A stretch of DNA of 37,873 nt from Anaeroplasmataceae bacterium (GTDB lineage Bacteria; Bacillota_I; Bacilli_A; Acholeplasmatales; Anaeroplasmataceae): positions 1-37,873 of the forward strand of contig JAIDZC010000001.1 in NCBI GenBank assembly GCA_029057785.1. Reading direction: 5' to 3'. This document shows positions 3,849 through 16,553 of this stretch, piece by piece (within the stretch, counting starts at the first letter, position 1; each line of letters begins with the position of its first letter). The notes beneath the pieces were generated by a model, which had not been told where the DNA came from, ran no database searches, and saw only the letters and a program-made list of their open reading frames with translations. Made by a program: the position numbers and the translations under genes.

Positions 3849-4976
3849 TTAATCCTTCCAATCATTCAGATGAATCATACCATAAATAAAATAATATATT
3901 TTAAACAAATATATTTTAGCTCCAAATTTTTCATTGCATTCAGGATTCTTACAAACTAAAAAAGGGTCACCATTTGCATTTCTATATCGTATTTGAACGA
4001 GAGATTTACATTTCGGACATGGTATTTCATTTGCTTCTAAATATGACTGATAAGTTTGAGCCAAAGAAAGAACTGTCACTTTTTCTGCTCCATTAGCATA
4101 CAAAACTTTAACAACTTCATTTAGAGATGTTCCAGTTGTTATAACATCATCTACAAAAAGTATCTTTTTTCCTCTTACATCAATACCTTCGACAACACTT
4201 ATAGAGCCTTCCATTTCTTTTTCACGTTCTACCTGATTCTTTTGTTTTAATGAATCAACTTCTCTATTTAATTTTAATATATTGTTTGGTATTGCTTTCT
4301 TAAATCTATCAAATTGATCCTTCTTTGCTGGAATATAACAAAAATAATCATATGTAGTAGAGGATCTTTCCAAAAAATACTCAAGTGAATTTTTAATAAA
4401 ATTTGATAAAACATCCAATTGGTGCTGCGTTTTACTATACTTCATTTCTATCTTACTTGATAAAAAGTCCATATTATCAGCACGCTTATGACGTCCATAA
4501 AATCTCCCTAAAGAATAAACTGAAATAACATCTTCAGTTTCTTCATCAAATTCATCTCCTAATGAAATTCGAGAATATATAGCAGTAGTATTTTTCTTAG
4601 ATAATGTAAAATCGTTAGTAAAAGCATACTTTTCAGAAAAAAGAGTATAAATATTACCTTGAATGAAATCATCTACTGTCTTAGCTTTTGCATCAACAGA
4701 ACCTTCATTGTTCTTTTGCCACCACTTTAGGTTATGATCTATTTGTATCAATGTCGGATACCATTGCTTTCCATCACTATCTACAATAAAATAATTTCTA
4801 CTTGATCTTGAAACATAAATAGTATCAAATCGAGTCCCCTGTACATTTTCAAAACCAAAAGTAAAAAAATCATCTATTTTAGAATCTATGAAATCACAAT
4901 TTTTAAAAGAAGACTTGATTTTATTATTTTCCTCTTCTGTGATAGTATTTTCATCAATAATTATTTGTATTTTCAT
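3849..4976 (-). CDS. Phosphoribosyltransferase-domain protein, ShosT-like
   Basis: A 375-residue protein. Residues 270-300 carry the type I PRTase PRPP-binding loop, VDDVITTGTS (275-284), after a hydrophobic beta strand. Next comes a four-cysteine zinc ribbon: C320-x2-C323 and C342-x4-C347. The N-terminal 250 residues are not recognisable and contain a basic coiled stretch at about 230-257. It begins three bases after the DprA-like gene. A PRTase gene paired with a DprA-like gene is the layout of the ShosTA toxin-antitoxin defence module, in which the PRTase protein is the toxin. I infer the same role here. A competence ComF-like origin is possible for the zinc/PRTase combination, though the size and order differ. 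Confidence 0.75.
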   Translation of the reverse strand: MKIQIIIDENTITEEENNKIKSSFKNCDFIDSKIDDFFTFGFENVQGTRFDTIYVSRSSRNYFIVDSDGKQWYPTLIQIDHNLKWWQKNNEGSVDAKAKTVDDFIQGNIYTLFSEKYAFTNDFTLSKKNTTAIYSRISLGDEFDEETEDVISVYSLGRFYGRHKRADNMDFLSSKIEMKYSKTQHQLDVLSNFIKNSLEYFLERSSTTYDYFCYIPAKKDQFDRFKKAIPNNILKLNREVDSLKQKNQVEREKEMEGSISVVEGIDVRGKKILFVDDVITTGTSLNEVVKVLYANGAEKVTVLSLAQTYQSYLEANEIPCPKCKSLVQIRYRNANGDPFLVCKNPECNEKFGAKIYLFKIYYFIYGMIHLNDWKD

Positions 4977-4979
4977 ATT

Positions 4980-5867
4980 CTATTCCACTCCCAATTTTTC
5001 CTTTAATAATCTTTTTAAGTCGTCAAAATGATTAAACTTATAAACATTTGTATATTCTTTTTTGAAATTATGTGGCCAACTATTATAAGGGTCATCAAAC
5101 ACTGATGCAGGAACAAACAGTGATTTTCCATTTTTAAGTGTGCTTCTTGCTTGGCTTACAGTTCCACTTGTGTCACCAGCTTGCATTACTATTGTTGAAT
5201 CTGAAATTGAACTCATTATATAATTACGCCTTAAAAAGTTCCATTTTAAAGTGGGTTCAAAATCTGCAAATTCTGTAATCAATAAACCATTTTTTTCAAT
5301 ATATTCTTGTATAACACGGTTTTCTTTCGGATAATACTTTTTTAAAGGTGTACCAATTACTGCTATAATATTTTTATAACCTGCATTAAAACAAAAGTTA
5401 TGTGTAGTCACATCTATACCTTTAGCAAGACCTGACACAATACATATATTTTTTGAAATTAAAAACTTAGTAATTCTAATGGTATCGGTTACTGCTCTTT
5501 CAGATGGATTTCTAGTACCAACTATGCTTAATGATACATTCTTTAGCAAATCAAGATTTCCTTCATAAAATAAAACGATAGGATGCTCTGTAGTATTTTT
5601 AACCTTATTTGGAAATATGTCATCTTCAATGAATATTATTTGATTCTCATACTTTTCAAAACAAGCTTCTGCTTTGCTCTTAATTTCATGAGTCAAATTT
5701 TTATATATATCTTTATCTTTATTATCTAAATCAAAAATACAATCTTCAATTCTTTTATTTAATACTTGAATATATCGCATAAAGAAAGAACGTGCTACTT
5801 CTCTTTTATATTGAAAGATTTGTAAAATAATGAAATAATTAATTATTTTATTTTTTCTATCATTCAT
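4980..5867 (-). CDS. DprA/Smf-like Rossmann protein, ShosA-like
   Basis: A 295-residue protein with the DprA core: VLFYEGNLDLL, SIVGTRNPSERA, IVSGLAKGID, IGTPLKKYYPKEN, and FLRRNYIMSS plus GDTSGTVSQARSTLKNGK. In DprA these surround the nucleotide/ssDNA-binding Rossmann pocket. There is no C-terminal winged helix of standard DprA; the N-terminal 95 residues are helical. ATG 5867 is used rather than ATG 5885, because AAAGGATGTG lies between them at proper spacing. It is the first gene of an operon with a PRTase gene, matching ShosTA, where the DprA-like partner neutralises the PRTase toxin. It is unlikely to be the housekeeping dprA, given its partner and location. Confidence 0.8.
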   Translation of the reverse strand: MNDRKNKIINYFIILQIFQYKREVARSFFMRYIQVLNKRIEDCIFDLDNKDKDIYKNLTHEIKSKAEACFEKYENQIIFIEDDIFPNKVKNTTEHPIVLFYEGNLDLLKNVSLSIVGTRNPSERAVTDTIRITKFLISKNICIVSGLAKGIDVTTHNFCFNAGYKNIIAVIGTPLKKYYPKENRVIQEYIEKNGLLITEFADFEPTLKWNFLRRNYIMSSISDSTIVMQAGDTSGTVSQARSTLKNGKSLFVPASVFDDPYNSWPHNFKKEYTNVYKFNHFDDLKRLLKEKLGVE

Positions 5868-5892
5868 AAAAACACATCCTTTCATTTTTTTT

Positions 5893-14004: not shown

Positions 14005-14967
14005 TTAATTTCTTTCTATTAACTTAATATCCATTCTCTTACAATATTCCATCATCTTAATCTTATTTTCTTTAGACACATTTTTACCTAAATAGATTGC
14101 TATTATTTTTGGTGCGATTGGTTTTTCTCCTGCATCTCCAATCAATCTCCATTCTCGTTGATATTTCCATTGCGTGTTTTTGGTTAGAAACAATCTTAAA
14201 TATTGTGTTATATCTGCTTTTATCTGCCCGTTACTCAAACTACTTATCCATTGTCCTATAAGATTTGAAACCAATTGAATTATAATATTTGTCTCTCGTA
14301 TATCTTCATATACTACAGGGAAAATGCTTTGATTGAAAGGATAATCAGATACATCATACGCGATACAACAACCTGTTTCATCTTCAGCATAATAATTATT
14401 CCACATTTCATCAATGTCTTTAGATTCGCTTAAAGAACATATTCCTACCCTTTCTTTAGAATATACTCCATAGGAAAGAAGTTTCTCAAGCTGAGGCTTA
14501 ATTGAAGGTTCATTTAACATATCAGGTATTGCAATAATGTAATTAACAAAAGGTGCTATATCTACGCTTGGAACTAGTTTTTGAAGTTCAGGGGCTATTT
14601 CCATCATATAATTTGGTCGTATTGTTCCATCAGGTTTTGTTATTCTTTTAACCATTGTTTCTAGTTTTTCATAGTTTTCAGGGGAAGTATAAGGTTTTAT
14701 CATCATTTGAATAATTTGATCAACACACTCTCTTTTCAAATTATTAGTTTCTAAATCCATTAGTCTATAAAAATCTAATGATGTGTTGCATTCAGATTCA
14801 TCATCTAAATCCTTAGCAGGACAAAGATATAGATAATTCTTTTCTAGCATATCAAAAGTATATTCATTAAAAGGTTTATACTTATATAAAATAGCAGGTC
14901 CAGAATATTTAATTTCTTCTTTTGTATTGATAACTAAATTCAAATAATCAATTTTGTTAATTTCCAT
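14005..14967 (-). CDS. DUF2971 family protein
   Basis: A 320-residue protein with the DUF2971 landmarks: LYKYKPFNEYTFDMLEKNYLY near the start, LCPAKDLDDESEC, VGICSLSESKDIDEMWNNYY, GCCIAYD and the closing KYQREWRLI. The family is common in defence islands; its biochemical activity is not settled as far as I know. AAGGAG lies eight bases before ATG 14967. A promoter with TTGTAA-18-TAAAAT sits upstream, and the next gene is a small HEPN-like protein in the same operon. I infer a two-gene defence or toxin-antitoxin unit. Confidence 0.75.
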   Translation of the reverse strand: MEINKIDYLNLVINTKEEIKYSGPAILYKYKPFNEYTFDMLEKNYLYLCPAKDLDDESECNTSLDFYRLMDLETNNLKRECVDQIIQMMIKPYTSPENYEKLETMVKRITKPDGTIRPNYMMEIAPELQKLVPSVDIAPFVNYIIAIPDMLNEPSIKPQLEKLLSYGVYSKERVGICSLSESKDIDEMWNNYYAEDETGCCIAYDVSDYPFNQSIFPVVYEDIRETNIIIQLVSNLIGQWISSLSNGQIKADITQYLRLFLTKNTQWKYQREWRLIGDAGEKPIAPKIIAIYLGKNVSKENKIKMMEYCKRMDIKLIERN

Positions 14968-15043: not shown

Positions 15044-15072
15044 TTTACAAAATTTTATTTTTGTTGTATAAT
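15044..15072 (+). promoter_or_regulatory. Strong promoter of a short RNA
   Basis: TTTACA (15044-15049), a 17-base spacer and a perfect TATAAT (15067-15072). No protein gene with a proper stop before the terminator follows it. Confidence 0.75.
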
Positions 15073-15078
15073 AAGAAA

Positions 15079-15222
15079 TGTCAATAAAGGGGGTGGTATC
15101 TTGAAGGCTCTAATTAAAGCTCTTATGATACTTCTTAGGCTCCAACTCGGTTTTACCATTGGATTCCCCTTTATTTCCATAAAAAAAAACACTAGAGGTA
15201 TTGTTCCTCTAGTTTTTATTTT
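15079..15222 (+). ncRNA. Predicted structured RNA of about 145 nt, unknown class
   Basis: Between a consensus promoter and a terminator (stem ACTAGAGG/CCTCTAGT at 15191-15213 followed by a T-run) lies a compact transcript. Its 5' end AATAAAGGGG (15083-15092) pairs perfectly with CCCCTTTATT (15166-15175), just before the terminator. Such end pairing occurs in type I toxin mRNAs, where it hides the ribosome site (here GGGGGTGG), and in retron and regulatory RNAs. A TTG-started frame from 15101 (MKALIKALMILLRLQLGF) is hydrophobic but has no stop before the terminator, so I do not call it a gene. It is not antisense to a known gene. The start of the transcript is estimated from the -10 box. Confidence 0.6.
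15191..15222 (+). terminator. Terminator of the short RNA
   Basis: An 8-bp perfect stem, ACTAGAGG with CCTCTAGT, and a 7-base loop, followed by TTTTTATTTTT. Confidence 0.9.
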
Positions 15223-15242
15223 TAGTGATATAAAATTAGGTT

Positions 15243-15286
15243 GTGCGGGATTGTGCGGGGAAAAATCGTGCGGGATTTTTCACGGG
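15243..15286. repeat. GC-rich GTGCGGG repeats with hairpin
   Basis: GTGCGGG occurs at 15243-15249, 15253-15259 and 15268-15274, the first two in a 10-base period, followed by CACGGG at 15281-15286. A perfect 8-bp hairpin, GAAAAATC (15260-15267) with GATTTTTC (15274-15281), has GTGCGG in the loop. The base make-up is unlike the AT-rich surroundings. The remaining stretch to 15461 holds only short GAAGTTAT direct repeats and no gene that I can support. Confidence 0.7.
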
Positions 15287-15461
15287 AAACTTATATAAAT
15301 TATTAAAACAATATAGAAGTTATGGAAGTTATATAGAACTATTTTAAAAGATATTGTTCATTTTATAAAGAATATTAAAGAAAAAATAAGATATTGAAAG
15401 TTGGTCACTTTGCTTCTAATCCATTGGGCAAATAAGATTATTCTCTTAAAACGCCCCATTT

Positions 15462-16553
15462 CTACTCATCTTTCCCTGATAAGCCTAGGCGATGCTTCTT
15501 TCTAATGTTTTTAGCTAGGAAATACATGGATGAGTCTATATCTGTCATACCTGGAACATCACGAATTAAAACCGCCTGTCTTAGACCTTCTACAAGAGAT
15601 TTGTTATCAATCATTATATCATGCTGATTAGAACCAATTGCCTCACTTACCAAATGAGTAAAGTCTGAATCCCTTGAACGTTCAAATGCATTTTCTTTAA
15701 ATTCGGAATTTTCATAAGAAATACTATAGGTATCTAAGGTATCCTTATTTCTAGCTACTATTGTAGAAATAATGGAAGAATCTAGACCACCTGATAGGAA
15801 TGTTGATAAATCTACATCTGAAACCATTTGTCTTTGAATTGCTCGATCTAATAGGATTCTAACCTTTCTCTTTGTTTCCTCATAGTTATATTTATATTCT
15901 TTTGCTTCTAATTGATAATACACATGCTCTTCTATTGGTGCACCCTTTTTAAATTTCAGATAATGTCCTGGTCTAAGCTCATAGATGCCCTTGAATACTG
16001 TTTTAGCCTGACTATGTGAAGGCCCCATCCCAAGAAGTTCACAAAGTCCTTCTTTATCTACAATTCTTTTATCTGTATACTCTAATATGGACTTTATCTC
16101 AGAAGATACGATAATATCTTCATCATAGAAGGTATAGTAAAGAGGCTTTACTCCAAACATATCTCTTACAATCCATACCTCATCCATATGGGTATATACA
16201 AACGCAAAGATTCCATTTAAATCCTTTAAGATATCTTCCTTATATTTTATCAATAGCTTTAATAGTAATAAGGTATCACTATTAAATTCTAACGGAGTAT
16301 CTAATTTTTTTACCAATTCATTTTGATTATAAATCTCCCCGTTATAAATCAAATGATCATTTAGGATACTCATCGGTTGTTTCGCATTAACTACATCTCG
16401 AATAGCTAGACGCTTATGTCCAAAGGAATGCTCCTTATTGAATAAAAACCCATAATCATCTGGACCACGATGATTTAATAAATTACATGCTTTTATAAAT
16501 TTTACTTCATCTGTATTTGTATAAAAATTACTCTTATAAAATATACCACACAA
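15462..16553 (-). pseudogene. asnB: Asparagine synthetase (AsnB type), 3'-truncated
   Basis: A 363-codon frame. Residues 1-190 form the class II glutaminase (Cys2 nucleophile, RGPDDYG, YNGEIYN, RDMFGVKPLYY). Residues 205-363 begin the ATP-pyrophosphatase synthetase domain with SGGLDSS (254-260). AsnB proteins go on for about 150-250 residues after the motif SGE-ADE-FGGY; here the frame stops right there, at LGLSGKDE. The bases beyond do not encode the missing part in any frame I read, so this is a truncation rather than one frameshift. The start is TTG 16553, with AGGAAGTGG upstream, which places Cys2 correctly. It might still supply glutaminase activity, but synthesis of asparagine should be lost. 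Confidence 0.75.

What the first reader, a model, noticed from the sequence alone, without database searches (positions are those of the whole stretch)
15044..15222. Isolated structured RNA with strong promoter and paired ends
Seen: TTTACA-17-TATAAT, a 10-bp perfect pairing between the transcript's start and the stretch before the terminator, and a clean terminator. The ribosome-like site GGGGGTGG is locked in the pairing. This form suits a type I toxin mRNA, a regulatory RNA or an RNA partner of a defence enzyme. It sits at the edge of the defence island, divergent from the DUF2971 operon.
Basis: partly seen in the sequence, partly recalled or inferred. Interest (0 to 1): 0.6.

Follow-up and report, generated by a model that had tools for sequence, protein, structure and literature searches.

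The report
Self-locked small RNA with ribosome site
The stretch encodes a short, strongly transcribed RNA that folds its own tail back over its ribosome-binding site, and the same fold with matching base changes turns up in scattered gut bacteria, so it is a real, undescribed RNA family whose exact job (perhaps a hidden toxin message, perhaps a regulator) is still open.

Summary
In detail: TTTACA-17-TATAAT, a perfect 10-bp pairing of 15083-15092 with 15166-15175, and an intrinsic terminator define an isolated ~145-nt transcript (fold z = -4.2). It is not chance. I found 17 copies in 14 genomes: Acholeplasmatales, other Bacilli and Clostridia. Each has a near-consensus Shine-Dalgarno (SD) followed by a start codon (lost or shifted in one copy) and a downstream strand that pairs with the SD; most have a sigma70-type promoter at a fixed distance. 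A covariance model built on eight copies recovered three more with no sequence pre-selection. Eighteen of 36 pairs show changes on both sides (shuffles: 7.9). No Rfam family matches. The start codon opens a 17-58-codon frame (MKAxxKALM...). Only the first nine codons look constrained, and they lie in a stem; further on, pairing overrides the amino acids. In the window the frame has no stop before the terminator. I read it as a small transcript whose translation start is locked by a 5'-3' helix, like type I toxin mRNAs (hok, aapA). It is not filed as one: I found no conserved antisense promoter, and toxicity could not be tested. Four loci lie beside defence genes; most do not, and no partner gene is shared.

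The parts
15044..15072 (+). sigma70-type promoter TTTACA-17-TATAAT; predicted transcript start near 15079
   Evidence: 11/12 consensus; in the short-form copies the -10 end lies 25-29 nt before the start codon in six, 33-55 nt in the other five; 56-61 nt in five of six Clostridia, the sixth (L062) having no promoter above 8/12
15083..15092 (+). 5' arm of the closing helix P1 (AATAAAGGGG)
   Evidence: covariation in P1 across members
15089..15096 (+). Shine-Dalgarno GGGGGTGG; GGnGGTG kept in 16 of 17 copies (G007 has GGGGAGTG)
   Evidence: sequence
15095..15132 (+). hairpin P3, holding the start codon and codons 2-11
15101..15298 (+). open frame from TTG: MKALIKALMILLRLQLGFTIGFPFISIKKN...; no stop before the terminator here (relative G003a has two fewer A and stops after 30 codons)
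15141..15163 (+). hairpin P5 (TCCAA...TTGGA with inner GGT/ACC); preceded by the GGCTCC motif
15166..15175 (+). 3' arm of P1 = anti-SD strand (CCCCTTTATT; TCACCTCC in most Clostridia)
15191..15222 (+). intrinsic terminator, 8-bp stem then T-run; bidirectional
15079..15222 (+). predicted whole transcript, about 145 nt, isolated between DUF2971 (14005-14967, minus) and a minus-strand asparagine-synthetase-like gene ending at 15462

Best explanation
This is a short messenger-like RNA that is transcribed strongly but kept untranslated by its own fold. Shown in silico: the 3' anti-SD strand pairs with the SD, the start codon lies in the adjoining stem, and this fold is maintained by compensatory changes in unrelated genomes. 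Inferred: as the transcript is completed the 3' strand closes over the SD, making the full-length RNA silent; trimming of the 3' end or attack on the RNA (for instance during phage infection or stress) opens it, and ribosomes then make a short cationic peptide starting MKA--KALM. The output is most likely growth-inhibiting, as for type I toxins (inferred, untested). It works like a type I toxin mRNA but is not shown to be one.
For: Seventeen copies in 14 genomes keep the SD, the 3' pairing strand and, in 16, a start codon at SD distance. Model R1, built on eight copies, finds three more in 392 genomes at E 5e-11 to 3e-6 with no peptide selection, and all three carry SD + ATG AAA GCN; it also finds the Clostridia copies at E 3e-7 to 8e-14. 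Covariation 18 pairs against 7.9 +/- 1.9 in shuffles, 0/500. SD predicted 61-99% paired in all 14 copies tested. Codons 2-9 favour synonymous change (8 syn: 3 nonsyn between members found by DNA similarity, P = 4e-4). Peptides are basic in all 12 tested. Aap-type mRNAs use the same 5'-3' lock opened by 3' trimming (PMC6733600).
Against: Beyond codon 9 the peptide is unconstrained: Clostridia codons 10-19 give dN/dS about 1.1, and L106 against L108 differ by 13 nonsynonymous and 1 synonymous changes, several of them compensatory. The frame runs past the terminator in the window and in L087, and G007 has no ATG/GTG/TTG in frame. Hydrophobicity varies (GRAVY -0.13 to 1.2). No conserved antisense promoter. 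No transcript or toxicity data.
Confidence: 0.42

Rival explanations
1. A regulatory RNA in which the fold and the act of ribosome binding matter, not the peptide: the SD captures or senses 30S subunits, or the C-rich anti-SD and GGCUCC strands, once freed, pair with SDs of other mRNAs.
For: Pairing overrides amino acids past codon 9; start or stop codon missing in some copies; conserved GGCUCC motif 5' of P5; codons 2-9 lie in the stem that holds the start codon, so their conservation may also be structural.
Against: A start codon at good SD spacing is kept in 16 of 17 copies, and no unpaired conserved seed is evident in the predicted folds.
Confidence: 0.38
2. A component or controller of neighbouring anti-phage systems (guide, antitoxin or sensor RNA).
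For: Window and G003: DUF2971/PDC-S31 at 130 nt; G490: PtuB-like HNH with a methyltransferase and a GHKL ATPase; G185: FRG-domain gene and another DUF2971; G163: SMEK/ABC-3C genes 217 nt downstream, AbiD nearby.
Against: No gene is shared between loci; G007, G028, G259 and the Clostridia copies show no specific defence neighbour within 1.5 kb. The control set near chance matches gave mainly ATPase-type hits, so the enrichment is only suggestive.
Confidence: 0.1
3. A leader or attenuator of the next gene.
For: SD sequestration and a terminator after a short frame are the anatomy of attenuators (general knowledge; anatomy).
Against: The next gene is on the opposite strand in the window, L070, L078, L091 and L092; where it is on the same strand the genes are unrelated.
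Confidence: 0.04
4. Chance fold in AT-rich intergenic DNA.
For: Promoter-like sites are common in such DNA (7 found, 3.9 expected).
Against: Conservation, covariation and recovery by the covariance model in other families.
Confidence: 0.02

Closest known systems
Type I toxin mRNAs with 5'-3' long-distance pairing (hok; aapA of Helicobacter, PMC6733600)
   Same: Short transcript with its own promoter and terminator, SD hidden by a 3' anti-SD strand, small basic peptide, further hairpins next to the SD.
   Different: No antisense antitoxin promoter found; peptide conserved only at the N-terminus; different hosts; frame sometimes lacks a stop before the terminator.
Membrane-associated type I toxins (Fst, TisB, SprA1; PMC8309996)
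   Same: Under 60 residues and cationic; the Acholeplasmatales copies are hydrophobic.
   Different: Clostridia and G259 peptides are short (17-28 aa) and not clearly transmembrane.
T-box riboswitches
   Same: Clostridia copies carry UGGYACCGCGGG or close variants (T-box-like core).
   Different: No stem I or specifier loop, motif sits in a hairpin loop, absent in the window, no Rfam T-box match.
C-rich regulatory RNAs of Firmicutes (RNAIII, RsaE/RoxS)
   Same: Structured RNA with anti-SD C-rich strands; RNAIII also contains a short frame (own knowledge).
   Different: Only a sub-threshold RsaE match (19 bits against a 79 cut-off); the C-rich strands are paired here.

Membership tests
Type I toxin-antitoxin toxin mRNA | primary transcript with SD sequestered by an anti-SD | tested here: met
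   predicted fold and covariation, (in silico only)
Type I toxin-antitoxin toxin mRNA | antisense RNA antitoxin (cis promoter on the other strand) | tested here: not met
   no antisense promoter at a conserved place or above 9/12 consensus in 14 copies; trans-encoded antisense not excluded
Type I toxin-antitoxin toxin mRNA | small hydrophobic peptide, usually with a transmembrane helix | tested here: inconclusive
   17-41 aa, basic, GRAVY -0.13 to 1.21; no toxin family hit in NCBIfam or Pfam
Type I toxin-antitoxin toxin mRNA | peptide inhibits growth | not testable with these tools
   needs expression
T-box riboswitch | stem I with specifier loop and antiterminator bulge | tested here: not met
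   no Rfam T-box match even at E<=10; UGGN not kept in window, G003, G007, L091
Any Rfam 15 family (6S, ToxI, known sRNAs) | match at gathering score | tested here: not met
   only chance-level matches at E<=10
Type III toxin-antitoxin RNA (ToxI-like) | tandem RNA repeats upstream of a ToxN-type nuclease | tested here: not met
   a single unit, no adjacent ToxN-like gene

The most novel reading that the evidence does not exclude
A mobile RNA-only module: a strongly expressed RNA whose locked ribosome site is sprung when the RNA is cut or unfolded during phage attack, with the ribosome-binding act or a loosely specified peptide as the harmful output and no separate antitoxin.
Probability: 0.12. 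Interest if true: 0.82.

Novelty: new variant of a known kind. Interest (0 to 1): 0.55.

Why it matters
It is a new, covariation-supported RNA family, absent from Rfam 15, spread sparsely across Bacilli and Clostridia (uncultured gut lineages where named, among them an Acholeplasmatales MAG), sometimes at the edge of defence islands. If it is a toxin message it would extend 5'-3' locked toxin mRNAs, known mainly from Proteobacteria and Helicobacter, to these groups; if the peptide does not matter it would be an unusual RNA whose conserved feature is a hidden ribosome site.

Tried and rejected
Rfam at gathering and permissive thresholds: nothing. NCBIfam and Pfam on the peptide: only a sub-threshold AimP match. 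Phage, plasmid and IMG/VR searches: no true member. Literature search for the peptide strings: none. T-box relation: considered for the Clostridia UGGYACCGCGG motif, rejected because it is not conserved and sits in a different structure. Pattern hits L064-L067, L069, L073, L074, L076, L077: chance. R2 hit in G963: chance match in a coding region. DUF2971 as dedicated partner: near the RNA in the window/G003 locus and again 4.9 kb away in G185, not elsewhere. First impression of a conserved peptide was weakened after seeing that the pattern used to find the Clostridia copies selected for it, and that L106/L108 change amino acids to keep pairs.

Full report
What is there. The window carries TTTACA-17-TATAAT at 15044-15072, a 10-bp perfect pairing between 15083-15092 and 15166-15175, and a bidirectional intrinsic terminator at 15191-15213. 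The predicted 145-nt transcript folds far better than shuffles (z -4.16). The SD GGGGGTGG (15089-15096) is shared between the 10-bp helix and the next hairpin and is about 86% paired in the ensemble. A frame starts at TTG 15101 with good SD spacing.

Relatives. DNA similarity gave two copies in G003 (one at the same locus, one elsewhere), one in G007 and a weaker one in G028. A peptide profile over 160 genomes of the order gave only these. A degenerate DNA pattern of the first codons, scanned over 84,980 species genomes, recovered the G003 and G028 copies and four Clostridia copies. DNA similarity from these gave two more Clostridia copies, and the peptide profile followed by DNA similarity gave three copies in one other Bacilli genome, G259. 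Three further copies (G490, G185, G163) came from the covariance model alone. That is 17 copies in 14 genomes. Distribution is sparse: 4 of 297 genomes in the Clostridia order searched (true members), 6 of 392 in the phylum sample. Between Clostridia copies the similarity is confined to the transcript region (about -77 to +112 around the start codon) and the flanks are unrelated. No member was found in phage, plasmid or viral-contig collections.

Anatomy of the family. Two forms occur. The short form (window, G003, G007, G028, G259, and G490, G185 and G163, of which G490 and G163 carry extra stems) is a three-way junction: P1 (SD with anti-SD), P3 (holding the start codon) and P5. The long form (Clostridia) adds P2, which pairs the start codon region GUUYAUG with CAURAAU, and a hairpin P4. 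A promoter-like site precedes the start codon: in the short form the -10 ends 25-29 nt before it in six copies and 33-55 nt in the other five; in Clostridia 56-61 nt in five of six, the sixth (L062) lacking one above 8/12. Terminator-like hairpins follow in most, judged by eye apart from the window; none is obvious in G490, G185 and G163.

Is the structure real? Model R1, built from eight short-form copies, found all six Clostridia copies at E 3e-7 to 8e-14 and, in 392 genomes, G490, G185 and G163 at per-genome E 5e-11 to 3e-6. Those three were not chosen on any peptide, yet all have SD + ATG AAA GCN. On the 11-sequence structural alignment, 18 of 36 pairs have changes on both sides (shuffles 7.9 +/- 1.9, 0 of 500) and the score falls at every slide of the pairing; that alignment is fitted to the structure and leans towards it. 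On the unfitted alignments the signal is weaker but in the same direction (A3: 9 pairs against 5.7, 14 cells against 6.5; A4: 5 pairs against 2.9).

Is the peptide real? The SD (GGnGGTG) is kept in 16 of 17 copies and a start codon in 16 of 17. Codons 2-9 favour synonymous change, also when only members found by DNA similarity are compared (8:3, P = 4e-4); but these codons lie in the stem with the start codon, so structure may contribute. From codon 10 on there is no sign of coding constraint in Clostridia (ratio about 1.1). Between L106 and L108 the frame shows 13 nonsynonymous and 1 synonymous change, and three pairs inside the frame change on both sides to keep pairing: here the RNA outranks the peptide. 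The window and L087 have no stop before the terminator; in the window this is due to two extra A in a run of A relative to G003a, which could be an assembly error. G007 lacks ATG, GTG or TTG in frame.

Context. The window locus lies between a DUF2971 gene (PDC-S31 in PADLOC) with further defence genes (a ShosA-like gene, Abi_2-like) and housekeeping genes. Three other loci are in defence neighbourhoods: G490 (methyltransferase, GHKL ATPase, PtuB-like HNH), G185 (FRG-domain gene, a PD-Lambda-2_B-like gene, DUF2971) and G163 (AbiD, PDC-S01, SMEK and DUF2326 of an ABC-3C system). L088 follows genes with weak phage tail and regulator matches, and L071 follows a serine-recombinase-like gene (by eye). 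The remaining loci show no specific defence genes within 1.5 kb. A control set near chance matches gave mainly ATPase-type hits among the families shown, so the association is suggestive only.

How it most likely works. The layout matches the non-translatable primary transcripts of type I toxins, in particular Aap-type mRNAs, where a 5'-3' interaction hides the SD until 3' trimming (PMC6733600). Shown in silico: the lock and its conservation. Inferred: silence of the full-length RNA, opening by trimming or damage, translation, and harm. No conserved antisense promoter was found, so it is not filed as a type I system. The main rival, a regulatory RNA that uses its ribosome site or C-rich strands directly, is nearly as likely because the peptide is poorly conserved.

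Noticed in passing
window 15241-15310: A GTGCGGGATT-containing repeat just behind the terminator recurs at 96% identity elsewhere in the same genome (C10:63832-63900) and, degenerated, behind the G007 copy; probably a separate short repeat.
   Followed up: partly
window 4980-5885 and 3849-4976: A ShosA-like (DprA-related) gene beside a gene with a phosphoribosyltransferase-like stretch: looks like a ShosTA defence pair (only ShosA was confirmed by profile).
   Followed up: partly
window 14005-14967 and L113:41-1126: DUF2971 (PDC-S31) genes occur near the RNA in two unrelated loci (130 nt in the window, about 4.9 kb in G185).
   Followed up: partly
window 15057-15084: A minus-strand promoter-like site (TTGACA-16-AAAAAT) overlaps the RNA's promoter and could drive the DUF2971 operon, so the two promoters may compete.
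   Followed up: no
L114:6230-9124 (G163): SMEK + CTD10 + DUF2326 genes of an ABC-three-component system start 217 nt downstream of an RNA copy.
   Followed up: partly
L118 and L119 (G259): Two RNA copies in one genome share the same convergent 313-aa gene of unknown family 144 nt downstream, hinting at a duplicated unit.
   Followed up: no
L062, L068, L070, L071 (Clostridia): The P5 loop carries UGGYACCG followed by CGGG or UGGG, close to the T-box core motif, and an upstream GGUGCC could pair with GGCACC as a pseudoknot.
   Followed up: partly
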